DNA of 52,110 nucleotides from positions 1 through 52,110 of the forward strand of contig JAFLBG010000023.1 of assembly GCA_017303975.1 (NCBI GenBank), given 5' to 3'. The DNA is from Bacteroidota bacterium (GTDB taxonomy: Bacteria > Bacteroidota > Bacteroidia > JAFLBG01). Shown piece by piece: positions 5,256 through 17,320 of the stretch (the first letter of the stretch is position 1; every line of letters starts with the position of its first letter). The position numbers and the translations under genes were made by a program. The notes under the pieces were generated by a model. It searched no databases. It worked only from the letters and a program-made list of their open reading frames with translations, and was not told the DNA's origin.

Positions 5256-5297
5256 AAAATCCCGTTCGGAAAATTATTTTCTGAACGGGATTTTTTT
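5256..5297. terminator. Bidirectional intrinsic terminator
   Basis: AAATCCCGTTC and GAACGGGATTT form a long GC-containing stem that continues inward through GGAAA/TTTTC. It is flanked by A-rich sequence on the left and by T7 on the right. It lies between the convergent helicase and dioxygenase genes and could stop transcription from both. Confidence 0.85.
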
Positions 5298-6171
5298 ATC
5301 CAATTTTAAAACATCTCATACTTATTGAGCCATGCTGAATTTCTTCATATAGCATTTTCAACGAATCGTTAGGTTGTTTCATTCCAATACAATATAACAT
5401 AGGTAGGTAATGGTCGTTTGTAGGAACTGCTAGTTGGGCCACCTTTCCAAGATTGGTATAATTTATTAAATCGTTAAAGGAATAGGATAATAGTTTTTCT
5501 TTACTCCACGAATCAAATTCCAGAGCCCAATCAAATGGATTTGCTGATAAGTTGAAATTTATTTGGGATAAATTGTGAACTATATTTCCGCTACCGATTA
5601 TCAAAACTCCTTTTTTTCTAAGTCCGGCAAGGTGTTTGCCTAATTCATAGTGGTATTGAGCTGGTTGGGTATAATCAATACTAAGTTGATAAACTGGGAT
5701 ATTTGCCATTGGAAACATGTGCTTTAATACTGTCCATGCACCATGATCTAAGCCCCATTCCGCATCTTCTAAAATTTTTACAGAGGTTGTTTCTTTAATA
5801 GTTTGTTTTGCCATTTCGGGTGAGCCACTTGCAGGATATTTTACCTGAAATAACTCCTCCGGAAATCCACCAAAATCATAAATTGTTTCGGGCTTTGTGG
5901 TGGTGGCTACGTAAGTACCTCTGGTAAGCCAATGTGCCGAAACAACCATAATTGCTTTGGGTGTAGCCAGTTCGCTTCCTATTTTAGCTAAACCTCGAGT
6001 AAAATTGTTGTCGTATAGTGCATTCATAGGAGAGCCATGTCCAATAAACAGCACGGGTTGTGTTTGCTCAACTGAGGTATTATCTAATGAGCGCTCCCAC
6101 CCTGATAATTTCTGAACTGTTGTCATAAAAAGTCCTCCTAATGATAGTTGTATAAATTGTTTACGTTGCAT
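5296..6171 (-). CDS. ygiD: Class III extradiol ring-opening dioxygenase (DODA/YgiD type)
   Basis: A 291-residue member of the 4,5-DOPA-extradiol-dioxygenase-like family (LigB fold), non-haem metal enzymes that open catecholic rings. The family signature GHGSPMNAL lies near residues 45-53; metal-ligand-type histidines appear in SAHWLTRGTYV and DHGAWTVLKHMFP, and IGSGNIVHNL follows. The N-terminus carries an extra leader (RKQFIQLSLGGLFM) that looks like an export or anchor signal; the E. coli enzyme has none. It is transcribed alone, facing the helicase. The physiological substrate cannot be read from the sequence; family members often act on unknown catechols. Confidence 0.82.
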   Translation of the reverse strand: MQRKQFIQLSLGGLFMTTVQKLSGWERSLDNTSVEQTQPVLFIGHGSPMNALYDNNFTRGLAKIGSELATPKAIMVVSAHWLTRGTYVATTTKPETIYDFGGFPEELFQVKYPASGSPEMAKQTIKETTSVKILEDAEWGLDHGAWTVLKHMFPMANIPVYQLSIDYTQPAQYHYELGKHLAGLRKKGVLIIGSGNIVHNLSQINFNLSANPFDWALEFDSWSKEKLLSYSFNDLINYTNLGKVAQLAVPTNDHYLPMLYCIGMKQPNDSLKMLYEEIQHGSISMRCFKIG

Positions 6172-8496: not shown

Positions 8497-9261
8497 ATGG
8501 GATTATTCTCAAATCTATTTAGTAAAAAGAAAAAGGAAGAAAGATTGTTAAATCCAATAGATCTTTCTGTTTTAGGTTGTGATATGCACTCCCATTTTAT
8601 ACCTGGGATTGATGATGGTGCGCAAACCATAGAAGATTCGGTTACATTAATTTCATTTTTTCATGAGTGGGGGTACAAAAAGGTAATTACCACACCTCAT
8701 GTAATGAGCGATACGTATAGAAATACTCCTGAAATAATTTTATCTGGTTTAGAAAAAGTTAGAGAGGCGCTCAAGCAACAAGGCATTCCAATTCAAGTGG
8801 AGGCAGCTGCGGAATATTACATGGATTATGAGTTGGAAAAAAAGATTGATGAAAAAACGTTGCTAACTTTAGGAAATACCAAGTATGTGTTGTTTGAGTT
8901 GTCGTTTGTGCAGCCACCGGATAATTTGTATCATTTGATTTTTAAAATGCAAACACAAGGTTACAAGCCTGTTTTGGCACATCCGGAGAGATATAATTTT
9001 TGGCATTCTGATTTTGAAGTGTACGAACAACTTGTTGATAAAGGCGTAGCGTTGCAGTTAAATTTAAATTCCCTTACCGGCTATTATTCTCCAGATGTTA
9101 AGATGATAGCAGAGCGGTTGATAGATAATAATATGGTTTCCTTTCTTGGTTCAGACTGTCATCATGTTGGACATATTAATTTGCTTAAGCAGGTGGTTTA
9201 TGAAAAGCCATTGGAGAAATTATTAGCCTCCGGAAAATTATTGAACCACACGTTGATTTAG
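8497..9261 (+). CDS. PHP-domain protein-tyrosine phosphatase of capsule regulation (CpsB/YwqE type)
   Basis: A 254-residue metal-dependent phosphatase of the CpsB/CapC/YwqE family, which dephosphorylates the tyrosine kinase that controls polysaccharide chain length. Metal-binding motifs are DMHSHFIPGIDDGA (residues 28-41), TTPHVMSDTYRNT, AHPERYNF and GSDCHHVGH. The cognate Wzc-type kinase is not in the window. It is the last of three polysaccharide genes, and its 3' end overlaps the convergent dehydratase gene by 4 bases (9258-9261). Confidence 0.88.
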   Translation: MGLFSNLFSKKKKEERLLNPIDLSVLGCDMHSHFIPGIDDGAQTIEDSVTLISFFHEWGYKKVITTPHVMSDTYRNTPEIILSGLEKVREALKQQGIPIQVEAAAEYYMDYELEKKIDEKTLLTLGNTKYVLFELSFVQPPDNLYHLIFKMQTQGYKPVLAHPERYNFWHSDFEVYEQLVDKGVALQLNLNSLTGYYSPDVKMIAERLIDNNMVSFLGSDCHHVGHINLLKQVVYEKPLEKLLASGKLLNHTLI

Positions 9262-10256
9262 TTTTTATTCAACTCTTCCATACTGCGCTTGATTAAATAT
9301 CCTAAAAACGCTTCATCTCTGTTTTGAATACCAAGTCGGTTGTTTGTCATGTGTATCAAGCTTTCATAAATCCAAAGTCTTTCAACTAATGGTTTTGCTA
9401 AATGTTTGGGCATATTATAATTTGCCGGAATATTGGCAACATATTTTTTTTCTTCTTGAAGCTTTATTACGGCTGAATTGTAATTTTTAATTTCAGCTAT
9501 CCAAGTATTCATCCATTCATTTTCAAATTCAGCCTCTTCCTGCAATCCATTCCAAAGCATTTCATGAAACCCAACTAGGAACTGTTTTTGTTTTTGAAAA
9601 TTTTCTTCAAAAGCTTTTTGAGTAATTTCTGCACGTTTTTTTAATTCTTCTGCATCTACATTAGGCTCGTAATTGTAATATGCACGAGGAAACCATGCTT
9701 GTTGTATATGAGCGTAGAAATAGCAAACTTCAGAATAGGTTAGTCCGATTGCGTGAGCAAAGCTTAAATGTAATTGAATTGCTGCGCCAAGTGCTTTTTC
9801 ATAAGACCAACCTTCCGATTCTGAAATGATTGCTAATACTGCATTTGAAGATGCTTGAAATTGTTGCTCTGCAAGTAATATTGCGTATTCGCCTCCATAT
9901 CGCTCAGTTTCCGGCTCGTAGGCAATGTGTTGAATAGAATTATTCGGATACCATTTTTTATCTTCCGGTAAATCTTTCATCCAAGGAGTTTCTAGGTTTT
10001 TGGAAGGATTTAGTGCTATATATTCCGAAAAAAAAGTAGTTAATCTTGGTAGTACATTTTTTTCTAAAGTGTCTTTATTCCCTTTGAAGCGCAGGCGGAT
10101 ATGAGGTCCACGCTCCCAATAACGAATAAAAAAATATTGATTGGCAAGACCTTCTTGTAAAATTTGTTCCGCAAAAGGTTTTACGGCTTCTGTTAATATC
10201 GTTTCCCAAGGCTCTGTGTAGTATAGGTAAGAAGCTAACCAATAGTCATTTTTCAT
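9258..10256 (-). CDS. LanB C-terminal (elimination) domain protein, thiopeptide-type
   Basis: A 332-residue stand-alone version of the lantibiotic-dehydratase C-terminal domain (SpaB_C, thiopeptide-type). In class I lanthipeptide and thiopeptide synthesis this domain eliminates glutamate from glutamylated Ser/Thr to give dehydroalanine/dehydrobutyrine. It opens with WLASYLYY, then FIRYWERGPHIRLRFKG (about residues 42-58), and has the family hallmark YEPETERYGG (about residues 113-122). It lies 63 bases downstream of the N-terminal partner at 10320 in the same direction, so the pair forms a split dehydratase like the TclK/TclL pair of thiopeptide clusters. Its 3' end overlaps the capsule phosphatase gene. 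Confidence 0.85.
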   Translation of the reverse strand: MKNDYWLASYLYYTEPWETILTEAVKPFAEQILQEGLANQYFFIRYWERGPHIRLRFKGNKDTLEKNVLPRLTTFFSEYIALNPSKNLETPWMKDLPEDKKWYPNNSIQHIAYEPETERYGGEYAILLAEQQFQASSNAVLAIISESEGWSYEKALGAAIQLHLSFAHAIGLTYSEVCYFYAHIQQAWFPRAYYNYEPNVDAEELKKRAEITQKAFEENFQKQKQFLVGFHEMLWNGLQEEAEFENEWMNTWIAEIKNYNSAVIKLQEEKKYVANIPANYNMPKHLAKPLVERLWIYESLIHMTNNRLGIQNRDEAFLGYLIKRSMEELNKN

Positions 10257-10319
10257 GCGTAGTAAGTTTTATTGTCTCGACACCACTTAATTAAGAGTTG
10301 GAATCGGATTTCTATTTAT

Positions 10320-13300
10320 TTAGCAATACCATTGCACTACAAATTCTGTAATGTGTTTATGGCCATTGATAGTAAACAATTGATTGGTATTCGGCAACAT
10401 TTCTTCTATTTTCATGCTTATAGGCGATTTGTCGCTTAGCTTTTCAAACAAATTTACCAAGTACGGATTTGAAAAAGAGATGTACTGTGGCTTGTAATCA
10501 TCTCTCCCTAATTTTTTAGCATTTTGCGCCTGTTGCTCGTTTTCGGGTTTTTGTGATTGATTGTAAATAACTACAAATACTTCATCAGGCATTCCGTTTT
10601 CTTTTCTCCAAATATTTACACGTGTAAAATATTCTCCATCAGTCTCAATAGGTTTTCGCAATGGCAATAATTCTTTGGGCACTTGCCATAATTTGCGCTT
10701 AAGTATTAATTGTGTGCCTACCATTACTCTAGGCTGTTGCGTAATGGTTTTAGCGGCTTTTTTAGTTGCAGTTCCAGCATCTTCTTGTTTTGCGGGAATA
10801 AAATTTGTTATGGCAGCTCCTACCAAAGGCTGGCTTGATAAGTATTGTGATTTGGTAAATTTATCTAACATCTGAAACAATTGAGAACGCCCTCCATGCC
10901 CTTGAAAACCTAGGTCGAAAACAAATATTTCTTTTTTTAATGTTTTGTGAAATAAGGAAATTCTTTTTAATTCTTTATTGTAAAATACGGTTAGTTCAGT
11001 TACGGGTACTTGTTTATCAGCGCTAACATTGTTGTGCCCGTTAGGCATCCAAATTTCATTTTCTAAAAGTGGTGGGTGTAGATTTGCATTGAAATACGAA
11101 GCATCACAATCCTCAATAAATAATTCATTTTCTTTTTCTTTGCTGTGATTCCATTTTTTTACATCGTTTGAAAATTCATCATCAAATAAATGCATAAATC
11201 TACTTACCATTTTTCCCCATCCTGAGAATACTGCATTTATAGTGCCATTCAGCTCTAAGTTTTCCCCTTCAAATAATTGAACAAACATTCCGAAGGATGT
11301 GTCTTTTCCGTAGTTGCTAAATCCCGGAGGGATAAGTTTTTCGAGCTCGCCAACAATTTCAGGATTTATAACAATGTTATCCTCGTTATCTTTACTCGTA
11401 AATGTCTTTATTAGTTCGGTCATTTTTTTTCGAAATTCTTCTATCAGCTTACCTCTCTCTTCTATTGATTTTACTTTAAACGCATCTGGAATTTCAAATT
11501 TTGTTTTTTCGTTTAACTCCTTTTGTAATGCTTGTGCTTCAGGAGATTCCGGTTTTAAGTCTTTTCCTTTTTCTCTGTACTCTTGAATAATTTTAGCATT
11601 CTCTTTGTTTTTTTGATCATAAAATTGCGCTTCTGCTTTTTTAAATTCTCTAAAATAATCCTCGTAAAATGTTAATAAATCTATGGTAGCGTCTGTTCCA
11701 TATTTATTCACAAAGAAATGTCCCATTCTTTGTTGCTCGTCAAAATAGCCTTCAAATAAGGCAAAGGCGGTAGTTAATTGGTGGATTTTTTGTACAAAGT
11801 CGTTTAGTTTTTCTTCATTTAATTTAATGTCGGCATCGTATTCGGTGTCTTCGTAAAAGACTTGTTCCGGCTTAAAGTTGAACATCGTAGAAGATTGATG
11901 TTTAAAGGCTTCTTCCTTTTTTTCTTCGTCTTTCTTTTCTTCTTCTTTCGGTAATTCAACCTCTGCTGGCTTATCTTCTTGCTTAGATTCCTTAGCTTTA
12001 TCTTTTAATTCCTTAGCTTTTTTGTCGGCTTCCTCTTTAAGTGCTTTTTGTTTTTCTCTCCATTCTTTTTCTATTTCTTCTTTTGGTCTCCTTTCTTCAG
12101 CTGGCAAACCTGCAGCTTCGTGCAGTTTCATGCATACGTTTTTGAAAATGCCGAAACCATCAACTAATATTTGTTTTCTTCTGCTAACATCTGCGGTTTC
12201 GTATTCTTTGGCATACACACGTAGTTTTTTTAAAACATCAATAAGCACTGCTACTTCTGTATTTGTTTCCGAAATAGTGGAGAGCTTTTCGCAAAGTTTT
12301 AAATCCCATTCCGTATCAATTCCGGAAACTCCAATGTTGTATTCTATAAATCCGTAATCTATAAGCTGCACTAAGTATGCATCTAGTTCGTCATGAGTAG
12401 CCTCTATGTATTCTTCTTTAATAAGTTTATCAATCAATTCTTTGTACCCAATTCCTTGCGATTGTTCGGAAATGAGTTCAATAAATAAATCGATAACCGG
12501 ATTCAGCGGAATACGCTGAAATGCCTCAACATTGTTGTGGTTAGTAAGATATAGGTAGTGGTCTTCCTTTTTTTGAATAGTAGGATTGATACGAATAAGA
12601 AAATGTTGCGAGATGCTTTTATTTTTTATTAGTAAAGTTCGGAGGTATTGAAAAAGAAAATTATTAATCCGGATATGGCTAATCATTCTATGAGAAGATG
12701 TCGAATCTATCTTTAAAAATGGAGCCTCTAGTTTTAGGTCTTTTGTCGTTTTGCTATGGCACAAGTTTGTAAATGTGCTAAATGGCGATGTTTTAGCATA
12801 CATTCTTGTTAGGTATTTTACTAAACCTTGTTCTACTTGAGATTCTTTCTTTTTTATTTCCGAAATTTTTTTCTGAGAATAATCCGGAATTCTATTCAGC
12901 AATGTTTGGCTTGATAAGATTAATCCTTTTTGAAAATCTTGATTGCTTAGAATGGTTTTGAAGTTTTCTTGAGACTGTTCTATTTCACTCGCGTATTCTT
13001 CAATAGCTTTTTGGGAAAGCGTTTCATATTGGTTTAGTAATTCAATAAAAGAGTATAAATTTTGTTTTTCGTTTTCGGAAATATAACTAACAATGCTTTC
13101 TATTTTTTCAATATCGTTTAATCGTTCGTTAAAAACATCACGCTTTACATTTAATATATTCTGCTGAACTTTAGAATCCGTTTGAGACGAAACTGTGTTG
13201 TATAGGCTGTCATTCAATTGATTTTTTAAGTCGATAATTTTTTTTCGTATTTCAACAGCTTTATCAATGGAATTGATGGTTTTATGAACATGCAGTTTAT

Positions 13301-13370
13301 GTAAGTCATCAGTAGGTCCGCCACTTATGCGTATTATAGAATGAGGGAATAATTGAATAGCGTTTGACAT
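10320..13370 (-). CDS. LanB N-terminal (glutamylation) dehydratase with charged insertion
   Basis: A 1016-residue lantibiotic dehydratase N-terminal protein. This domain uses glutamyl-tRNA to glutamylate Ser/Thr of a precursor peptide. Recognisable parts are the N-terminal HSIIRISGGP, the family segment RMYAKTSPFSTFTN (about residues 190-205), and the C-terminal PQYISFSNPYLVNLFEKL. It is longer than expected for a split N-terminal half. An extremely Lys/Glu-rich stretch (about residues 427-490) and a second helical charged region (about 560-650) interrupt it. The insertion is probably a coiled or disordered linker, with no recognised domain. The partner elimination protein follows at 9258. 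No LanC cyclase, transporter or leader-peptide gene is seen on either side; upstream is ruvB, divergent. Whether it makes a peptide product or modifies another target is unknown. Confidence 0.85.
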   Translation of the reverse strand: MSNAIQLFPHSIIRISGGPTDDLHKLHVHKTINSIDKAVEIRKKIIDLKNQLNDSLYNTVSSQTDSKVQQNILNVKRDVFNERLNDIEKIESIVSYISENEKQNLYSFIELLNQYETLSQKAIEEYASEIEQSQENFKTILSNQDFQKGLILSSQTLLNRIPDYSQKKISEIKKKESQVEQGLVKYLTRMYAKTSPFSTFTNLCHSKTTKDLKLEAPFLKIDSTSSHRMISHIRINNFLFQYLRTLLIKNKSISQHFLIRINPTIQKKEDHYLYLTNHNNVEAFQRIPLNPVIDLFIELISEQSQGIGYKELIDKLIKEEYIEATHDELDAYLVQLIDYGFIEYNIGVSGIDTEWDLKLCEKLSTISETNTEVAVLIDVLKKLRVYAKEYETADVSRRKQILVDGFGIFKNVCMKLHEAAGLPAEERRPKEEIEKEWREKQKALKEEADKKAKELKDKAKESKQEDKPAEVELPKEEEKKDEEKKEEAFKHQSSTMFNFKPEQVFYEDTEYDADIKLNEEKLNDFVQKIHQLTTAFALFEGYFDEQQRMGHFFVNKYGTDATIDLLTFYEDYFREFKKAEAQFYDQKNKENAKIIQEYREKGKDLKPESPEAQALQKELNEKTKFEIPDAFKVKSIEERGKLIEEFRKKMTELIKTFTSKDNEDNIVINPEIVGELEKLIPPGFSNYGKDTSFGMFVQLFEGENLELNGTINAVFSGWGKMVSRFMHLFDDEFSNDVKKWNHSKEKENELFIEDCDASYFNANLHPPLLENEIWMPNGHNNVSADKQVPVTELTVFYNKELKRISLFHKTLKKEIFVFDLGFQGHGGRSQLFQMLDKFTKSQYLSSQPLVGAAITNFIPAKQEDAGTATKKAAKTITQQPRVMVGTQLILKRKLWQVPKELLPLRKPIETDGEYFTRVNIWRKENGMPDEVFVVIYNQSQKPENEQQAQNAKKLGRDDYKPQYISFSNPYLVNLFEKLSDKSPISMKIEEMLPNTNQLFTINGHKHITEFVVQWYC

Positions 13371-15529: not shown

Positions 15530-17320
15530 TTATACAACCTCAAATTGTAACCTACTTAGATTTTTATATAAGCCATTTTCAATAGCAATTAATTCTTCGT
15601 GAGTCCCTAGTTCTTTTACCAAGCCCTTATCCATCACAACAATTTTGTCTGCTTTGCGAATGGTGGATAGTCTATGTGCAATTACAATGGACGTTCTTCC
15701 CACCATTAGGTTGTCTAATGCTTCTTGTACCAATCTTTCAGATTCGGAATCTAATGAGCTGGTGGCTTCGTCCAAAATTAAAATAGCAGGGTTTTTCAAT
15801 ACTGCTCTGGCAATCGCAATTCGTTGGCGCTGACCTCCGGATAATTTAATACCTCTTTCGCCAACTATAGTTTCAAATTTTTCCGGAAAACTTTCAATAA
15901 AAGACAGCGCATTTGCTTTTTGAGCAGCAGCTTTAATTTCTTCTAGTGTAGCATCCGGTTTTCCGTAGGCAATATTTTCTTTAATACTTCCACCAAACAG
16001 AAGCACATCTTGTGGAACAATGGCAATGTTATTTCGTACTTGCGACAAAGGGTATGAATTGTAATCTTTGCCATCGATGCTAATAATTCCTTTTTGTGGC
16101 GTGTAAAAACGTAGTAGCAATGATGCAATAGTTGTTTTTCCCGCACCACTTGGTCCAACGATAGCAATAGTTTCGCCTTTGTTGGCATTGAAAGAAATGC
16201 TTTTTAACACTTCCATTTCTTTACGACTTGGATATGTAAATGCTACTTCCTTAAACGAAACATCGCCATTTAGTTTAATTGGATTTTTGTGCGCATGAAT
16301 ATCAATTGGTTCGGTGCTTTCTTCAAGAATTTCAAAAATTCGTTCTGTGGCTCCAACCGATTTTTGGATTTGTGCATACAGCTCGGCTGTGCCGCCAATT
16401 GCAGCTCCCACAAATACTGAGTACAAAACAAATGCTAAAAGGCTACCAATTGTTAGCTCTCCGTTAATGGTTAAAATTACACCATACCAAACAACTGCTA
16501 CAATGGCTCCGAATACACAAAAAATTATAAAGGATGCAAATCCTCCTCGGTACATTCCATTGCGAGTAGCTAGTTTTACAATTTCATCAATACTTTTTTG
16601 GTACCGAATAATTTCGTAAAGTTCATTGGCAAATGCCTTTACATTAGCTATGCCTTGTAATGTTTCTTCTACAACGGTATTAGATTCTGCTACTTTATCT
16701 TGCACTTGTTTAGAAATTTTGCGAATCAATCGCCCTAAAATAACACCCGCAACGGCAACGATAGGAACTATTGACAACATTAATAAGGTAAGCTTAACGG
16801 AATATACTGCCAGCAAGGCAATTCCTCCAACTATTAAAATAATTTGTCGAGCAAACTCCGCAATGGTAGTGGTTAAGGTGTCTTGTATTAAGTTTACATC
16901 GGCAGAAAGACGACTGTTTAATTCACCCACTCGTTTTTCTGAAAAGTATGTCATGGGCAATTTTATTAGGTGTTCGTAGGTATGAATACGAAGTTTAGCC
17001 AATGTGTTTTCGGTAAAATTTACGAACAAATAAATTCTGAAATACGAAAATACAGACTGACCAATTAGAACAATTACAAGTAGAAGTCCGAGTTCGTTTG
17101 CTCTTTCAATGTTGTGGTCTTTGGCAGTGTCAGCTAGTTCTCCCATAAATTTCGGGAAAATAAGAGCTGTAGCACTTGTCAGTAAAAGAAAAATTATTCC
17201 AACATAAAATTTCCAAAGATTTTCTTTGTTGTATGAAAAAAGTTTAGCCGATTTACTAAGTGTAGATCGTGTTAGTTTTGCTTTAGGTAAATCGTCTGTA
17301 TTTTTTTTCCCGCGTGCCAT
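15530..17320 (-). CDS. MsbA-like ABC exporter, fused membrane and ATPase domains
   Basis: A 596-residue half-transporter of the inner membrane. An N-terminal transmembrane domain of six segments (about residues 30-325) is followed by a nucleotide-binding domain (about 345-590) with Walker A GPSGAGKTT, signature LSGGQRQR, Walker B ILILDEATSSLD and the IAHRLST switch histidine. The family includes MsbA (lipid A flippase) and multidrug exporters. The substrate cannot be told here, and the gene is not linked to the lipid A genes at 28-31 kb. Transcribed alone, convergent with queG. Confidence 0.88.
   Translation of the reverse strand: MARGKKNTDDLPKAKLTRSTLSKSAKLFSYNKENLWKFYVGIIFLLLTSATALIFPKFMGELADTAKDHNIERANELGLLLVIVLIGQSVFSYFRIYLFVNFTENTLAKLRIHTYEHLIKLPMTYFSEKRVGELNSRLSADVNLIQDTLTTTIAEFARQIILIVGGIALLAVYSVKLTLLMLSIVPIVAVAGVILGRLIRKISKQVQDKVAESNTVVEETLQGIANVKAFANELYEIIRYQKSIDEIVKLATRNGMYRGGFASFIIFCVFGAIVAVVWYGVILTINGELTIGSLLAFVLYSVFVGAAIGGTAELYAQIQKSVGATERIFEILEESTEPIDIHAHKNPIKLNGDVSFKEVAFTYPSRKEMEVLKSISFNANKGETIAIVGPSGAGKTTIASLLLRFYTPQKGIISIDGKDYNSYPLSQVRNNIAIVPQDVLLFGGSIKENIAYGKPDATLEEIKAAAQKANALSFIESFPEKFETIVGERGIKLSGGQRQRIAIARAVLKNPAILILDEATSSLDSESERLVQEALDNLMVGRTSIVIAHRLSTIRKADKIVVMDKGLVKELGTHEELIAIENGLYKNLSRLQFEVV

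What the first reader, a model, noticed from the sequence alone, without database searches (positions are those of the whole stretch)
9258..13370. Split LanB dehydratase with no precursor, cyclase or transporter
Both halves keep family motifs (TSPFSTFTN in the glutamylation part, EPETERYGG in the elimination part), so the enzyme looks active. Yet the neighbours are capsule genes and ruvB, and the flanking gaps (63 and about 56-89 bases) are too small for a leader-peptide gene. It may act on a remotely encoded peptide, or use tRNA-dependent glutamylation for something other than a lanthipeptide.
Basis: partly seen in the sequence, partly recalled or inferred. Interest (0 to 1): 0.68.

Follow-up and report, generated by a model that had tools for sequence, protein, structure and literature searches.

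The report
Dehydratase serving scattered lanthipeptide genes
This two-part enzyme looks orphaned where it sits, but it is most likely the first step of an antibiotic-like peptide pathway of the pinensin type whose partner genes, including at least twelve different peptide substrates, are scattered around the same genome.

Summary
10320-13370(-) is a glutamylation protein (PF04738; nearest solved structure TbtB) and 9258-10256(-) an elimination protein (PF14028). The five NisB elimination residues checked are kept, and no leader-bearing precursor, LanC or peptidase-transporter was found in the 52-kb window. Genome-wide the claim fails. The genome holds exactly one LanC (661 aa, zinc ligands intact, contig C10), one C39-peptidase ABC transporter with an adjacent HlyD (contig C8, 65% identical to transporters inside related LanB clusters), and twelve short precursors with the pinensin leader (NF038180) on eight contigs. 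Leaders are alike; cores are variable and Cys-rich (8.0% versus 1.05% background). In most of 76 related loci the same parts form one cluster; one is Chitinophaga sp. YR627, reported to encode the pinensin core. So this is a pinensin-type class I lanthipeptide pathway, taken apart and dispersed, with the dehydratase acting in trans. In this enzyme family, genomes with one to four precursors mostly keep them in the cluster; twelve genomes with 6-44 precursors scatter them. This resembles prochlorosins, but with class I enzymes. Modification itself is inferred, not shown. New variant of a known kind; moderate interest.

The parts
10320..13370 (-). LanB glutamylation protein (LanB-N), 1016 aa
   Evidence: PF04738 E 9.2e-25; best PDB sequence match TbtB 6EC7; AlphaFold2 model pLDDT 87.6, significant fold matches only TbtB 6EC8/6EC7, GodF, MadB, NisB, MibB
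9258..10256 (-). LanB elimination protein (LanB-C), 332 aa
   Evidence: PF14028 E 8.8e-47, TIGR03891; NisB R784/R786/E823/R826/H961 align to R54/R56/E116/R119/H302
12765..12806 (-). Glutamylation motif R189-x3-K193-T-S-P-F-S-T-F-T-N
   Evidence: R189, K193, P196, F197, S198, F200 invariant in 32 relatives; same motif in TbtB
12336..12599 (-). RRE-like region of LanB-N (residues about 258-345), putative leader-binding part
   Evidence: strand-strand-strand-helix-helix-helix-strand order in the model; position corresponds to the LanB RRE known from NisB (established knowledge); inferred
11907..12059 (-). Charged Lys/Glu-rich linker of LanB-N (residues about 438-488)
   Evidence: partly low pLDDT (463-485) and variable, gapped alignment
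9891..9917 (-). Elimination motif EPETERYGG (residues 114-122)
   Evidence: aligns to NisB 821-829 DQEVERYGG
10257..10319 (.). 63-bp gap between the two co-oriented genes, likely one operon
   Evidence: inference

Best explanation
The pair is the split dehydratase of a pinensin-family class I lanthipeptide pathway whose genes have been dispersed. LanB-N transfers glutamate from Glu-tRNA to Ser/Thr of leader-bearing precursors; LanB-C eliminates glutamate to give Dha/Dhb; the LanM-like LanC on contig C10 adds Cys to form thioether rings; the C39 ABC transporter and HlyD on contig C8 cut after the GG/GA leader end and export the product. One enzyme set, guided by one conserved leader, serves about twelve unlinked precursors with different cores. 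Shown here: presence, single-copy status, intact residues, leader conservation, and linkage of the same parts in relatives. Inferred: catalysis, substrate binding, export, and that all twelve are substrates.
For: Family and fold. Catalytic residues kept. Twelve NF038180 leader matches in the genome, none in 14 control genomes and none in 389 of 395 class genomes. All five genomes with the leader over cut-off also carry Lant_dehydr_C (46 of 395 do; hypergeometric p 1.8e-5). Only one LanB-N, LanB-C, LanC-domain and C39 protein in the genome, so no other enzyme set can serve them. In most of 76 loci the same LanB pair sits with the long LanC and leader-bearing precursors, including Chitinophaga sp. 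YR627, whose core is reported identical to pinensin (PMC9248904). The C8 transporter is 65% identical to cluster-borne ones. Cores hold 71 Cys in 891 aa; leaders average 56% identity while cores outside one five-member family are at the shuffled baseline. Split LanB and LanM-like LanC are published pinensin hallmarks (PMC7268733).
Against: No expression or product data. No shared promoter motif between enzyme genes and precursors. One of twelve cores has no Cys (C6b). Seven cores are 79-100 aa, longer than typical lanthipeptide cores. The genome is a 70-contig assembly with no relative in its order among those searched, so conservation of the dispersed layout could not be traced within its own order.
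Confidence: 0.86

Rival explanations
1. The LanB pair is a remnant of a lost pinensin cluster and no longer works on anything; the leader ORFs are relics.
For: No linked precursor or cyclase; one core lacks Cys.
Against: Both ORFs are intact with every conserved residue checked; LanC with zinc ligands and LanT with C39 peptidase are intact too; twelve leaders conserved while cores diversify; the same dispersal occurs in isolates such as Fulvivirga imtechensis.
Confidence: 0.06
2. The pair uses tRNA-dependent glutamylation for something other than a lanthipeptide, for example PEARL-like amino-acid addition or pyridine-forming chemistry.
For: Nearest structures are thiopeptide enzymes TbtB and, for the small protein, TbtD among others; the gene pair is orphaned locally.
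Against: The five NisB elimination residues are kept and, apart from one paralogue, invariant in relatives; eleven of twelve precursors carry Cys/Thr-rich cores, not empty scaffolds; LanC and LanT partners exist; relationship to pinensin enzymes.
Confidence: 0.04
3. Only a few precursors, such as the one 9 kb from LanC on C10, are true substrates; the rest are not processed or are processed otherwise.
For: The precursor at C10:59057-59425 is the only one near LanC; cores differ strongly.
Against: Leaders are similarly conserved in all twelve and no other LanB, LanC-domain or C39 protein exists in the genome; other genomes reach 22-44 precursors.
Confidence: 0.15

Closest known systems
Pinensin biosynthesis (Chitinophaga pinensis / sp. 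YR627), class I lanthipeptide
   Same: Split LanB, long LanM-like LanC, pinensin leader NF038180, C39 transporter; homologous enzymes (about 27-29% identity of LanB-N to Chitinophaga proteins, 41-45% to closer relatives).
   Different: Pinensin clusters hold one precursor beside the enzymes; here twelve precursors with different, mostly longer cores are scattered and the enzymes are at three unlinked sites. LanC zinc ligands are intact here but appear lost in the Chitinophaga, Pedobacter and Aquimarina proteins.
Prochlorosins / ProcM and SyncM (class II)
   Same: One enzyme set for many leader-sharing precursors scattered over the genome (PMC10783134).
   Different: ProcM is a single class II LanM; here a two-protein tRNA-dependent dehydratase plus a separate cyclase; leader family unrelated (not Nif11).
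Thiopeptide split LanB (TbtB, TbtD) and goadsporin GodF
   Same: Glutamylation and elimination-type proteins on separate polypeptides; closest solved structures.
   Different: NisB-type elimination residues kept; lanthipeptide cyclase and pinensin leaders present in the genome; no thiopeptide genes seen beside the pair.
NisB / MibB / MadB full-length class I dehydratases
   Same: Same two catalytic domains and key residues.
   Different: One polypeptide there, two here; 11-14% sequence identity in the structural alignments.

Membership tests
Class I lanthipeptide dehydratase (LanB) | Glutamylation domain Lant_dehydr_N with TbtB/NisB fold | tested here: met
   PF04738; fold match to TbtB, E 1e-36
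Class I lanthipeptide dehydratase (LanB) | Elimination domain with NisB R784, R786, E823, R826, H961 | tested here: met
   R54, R56, E116, R119, H302
Class I lanthipeptide dehydratase (LanB) | tRNA-Glu-dependent dehydration of Ser/Thr | not testable with these tools
   needs an enzyme assay
Pinensin-type class I lanthipeptide pathway | Dehydratase split into two proteins | tested here: met
   published hallmark in PMC7268733
Pinensin-type class I lanthipeptide pathway | Precursor with pinensin leader NF038180 | tested here: met
   12 in own genome, none linked to the LanB pair
Pinensin-type class I lanthipeptide pathway | LanC related to LanM cyclase domains | tested here: met
   best NCBIfam match TIGR03897 LanM, best PDB sequence match LicM2
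Pinensin-type class I lanthipeptide pathway | C39 peptidase-transporter of the same subfamily | tested here: met
   65% identity to cluster-borne transporters of relatives
Pinensin-type class I lanthipeptide pathway | Genes in one cluster | tested here: not met
   enzyme genes on C23, C10, C8; precursors on eight contigs
Pinensin-type class I lanthipeptide pathway | Product with lanthionine rings, antifungal activity | not testable with these tools
   no product data
Prochlorosin-like (one enzyme set, many scattered substrates) | Many unlinked precursors with a common leader and variable cores | tested here: met
Prochlorosin-like (one enzyme set, many scattered substrates) | Class II LanM (ProcM) with Nif11 leader | tested here: not met
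   enzymes are LanB-N, LanB-C and LanC; leader is NF038180. It works like it but is not a member

The most novel reading that the evidence does not exclude
A class I counterpart of the prochlorosin system: a leader-guided split LanB plus LanM-like LanC that modifies 6-44 unlinked precursors per genome, arising repeatedly in Bacteroidota and found in genomes labelled Ignavibacteria, Aminicenantes and Acidobacteriota.
Probability: 0.62. Interest if true: 0.7.

Novelty: new variant of a known kind. Interest (0 to 1): 0.52.

Why it matters
Cluster-based genome mining looks for precursors beside the enzymes and would call this locus an orphan. If the reading is right, up to tens of uncharacterised lanthipeptides per genome are overlooked in Bacteroidota and allies, and there is a class I enzyme set with natural substrate tolerance comparable to ProcM, useful for making thioether-ringed peptides and for asking what such peptide repertoires do.

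Tried and rejected
Shared promoter motif between LanB, LanC, LanT and precursors: none found with the Bacteroidota -33/-7 pattern; by eye only recent duplicates share upstream sequence. RRE identity of the LanC C-terminal extension: strand/helix order fits and hhalign to the LanB-N RRE-like region gives E 0.00037 but probability only 36%, with no Pfam or PDB sequence hit; left open. Pyridine-synthase reading of the small protein: TbtD is a weak sequence match, but the elimination residues are kept. MsbA-like ABC exporter at 15530-17320 as the missing transporter: its family matches are generic exporters and no C39 domain was found.

Full report
What is there. The two reverse-strand ORFs exist as described: 332 aa at 9258-10256 and 1016 aa at 10320-13370, 63 bp apart. 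Pfam assigns Lant_dehydr_C (E 8.8e-47) and Lant_dehydr_N (E 9.2e-25). By sequence the large protein's best solved relative is TbtB, the thiomuracin glutamylation enzyme; an AlphaFold2 model (pLDDT 87.6) significantly matches only TbtB, GodF, MadB, NisB and MibB. In the small protein the residues corresponding to NisB R784, R786, E823, R826 and H961 are R54, R56, E116, R119 and H302 (HMMER alignments; alignment of 26 relatives). That these residues matter for elimination in NisB is established knowledge; conservation of essential NisB residues in MadB is restated in PMC12241602. In the large protein R14, R77, N81, R189, K193 and P196 are invariant in 32 relatives. Both proteins therefore look active. 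They are the only such genes in the genome.

Surroundings. No leader-bearing ORF of 35 aa or more and no LanC of this type lies in the window. The neighbours are a CpsB/CapC-like gene and ruvB. The MsbA-like exporter at 15530-17320 has no peptidase domain among its Pfam matches.

The rest of the pathway. The genome (3.43 Mb, 70 contigs, 99.8% complete, 0.3% contaminated) has exactly one LanC-domain protein, 661 aa, at C10:68380-70365, with H215, C296, C346 and H347 kept. Its best NCBIfam match is LanM and its best PDB sequence match LicM2. About 9 kb away is a 122-aa ORF matching NCBIfam NF038180, pinensin leader. Searching the genome with it, and then with NF038180, gave twelve such ORFs: C1 (2), C4 (2), C5 (2), C6 (2), C7, C10, C13, C24. 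Their neighbours, read by eye, are ordinary genes such as truB, queA, ftsK and secreted repeat proteins. The single C39-peptidase ABC transporter is at C8:30959-33151 with an HlyD gene next to it; it is 65% identical to the transporter inside LanB clusters of relatives, against 45% to that of Chitinophaga sp. YR627.

Are the precursors real substrates? Leaders are 56% identical on average; cores average 28% against 23% for shuffled cores, and five of the twelve share one core family (49%), the other pairs being near the baseline (24%). The pooled cores are 8.0% Cys against 1.05% in long ORFs of the window, and rich in Thr. One core has no Cys. NF038180 found nothing in 14 control genomes and nothing in 389 of 395 genomes of the class. 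The five genomes over its cut-off all carry Lant_dehydr_C, p 1.8e-5. Because the genome holds no other LanB, LanC-domain or C39 protein, no second enzyme set of known kind could be responsible.

Relatives. A scan of named genomes gave 76 loci. Most carry LanB-N, LanB-C, a LanC of about 600-730 aa and one to four leader ORFs within one cluster, many with the C39 transporter as well. One is Chitinophaga sp. YR627 (L186), whose core is reported identical to pinensin (PMC9248904). Walker et al. (PMC7268733) describe pinensin's split LanB and the LanM-like LanC of its family, the same two hallmarks. Membership in the pinensin family is thus tested and met except for clustering.

Dispersal is a pattern. 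Counting leaders in 53 genomes and placing them on a LanB-N tree: genomes of the Chitinophaga/Pedobacter clade have one precursor, in nearly all cases in the cluster. In the window's clade, twelve genomes have 6 to 44 precursors, and in ten of these none lies on the fetched stretch around LanB, in the other two only three. Some of those contigs are short, so the near counts are lower bounds. Three of the twelve are Fulvivirga isolates (14, 22 and 31 precursors), so the pattern is not just a binning artefact. The many-precursor state needs at least eight changes on the tree, a quick tree with weak support in places. Phylum labels of MAG records (Aminicenantes, Acidobacteriota, Ignavibacteria) are as deposited and were not checked.

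How it most likely works. LanB-N glutamylates Ser/Thr of the precursors from Glu-tRNA, LanB-C eliminates, LanC closes thioether rings, and LanT/HlyD cut at GG/GA and export. The leader is the feature common to all precursors, so leader binding by the RRE-like part of LanB-N (residues about 258-345) is the likely way one enzyme set reaches all. The LanC has a 230-aa C-terminal extension ending in a similar strand-helix pattern; a leader-binding role is suggested but not established. Everything in this paragraph is inference from homology.

Novelty. The enzymes and leader are known kinds. What I did not find in the papers I could search is a class I enzyme set serving many unlinked precursors; the known case is class II (ProcM, 29 substrates; SyncM, 79; PMC10783134). 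Subscription literature was not available, so absence of a report is weak evidence.

Noticed in passing
L138 (G011:C5) 5258-5449, 10137-12174: A 63-aa ORF with a pinensin-like leader ends right at AGG with no core. It lies beside what look like a C39 transporter and HlyD, two stand-alone LanB-C-like proteins, and by eye adenylation and condensation domain genes, with no detectable LanB-N: possibly a scaffold-peptide system.
   Followed up: partly
L186 13362-15218, L182 13577-15541, L135 11014-12888: LanC proteins of pinensin-type clusters in Chitinophaga, Aquimarina and Pedobacter appear to have lost zinc-ligand Cys/His positions that the window genome's LanC keeps.
   Followed up: no
L004 10381-12366 (C-terminal 230 aa): The long LanC carries a conserved C-terminal extension without Pfam or PDB sequence relatives; predicted strand/helix order resembles an RRE winged helix.
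   Followed up: partly
L136 9538-10515 (G046:C10): A second LanB-C copy beside a second LanC and a precursor has lost the NisB R826 equivalent (ETILLGG instead of ETERYGG), in a genome with only one LanB-N.
   Followed up: no
L009, L010, L013, L017: Several scattered precursor genes in the window genome sit next to large secreted PKD-type or C-terminal-sorting-domain-like proteins.
   Followed up: no
L213 (Acidobacteriota MAG), L167 (Cyclobacteriaceae MAG): Genomes with 44 and 40 pinensin-leader ORFs, none on the fetched stretch around LanB.
   Followed up: partly
L140 6901-7161 (G000:C6): One leader-bearing ORF has a 38-aa core without any Cys, so it could be dehydrated but not ring-closed, or is decaying.
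   Followed up: no
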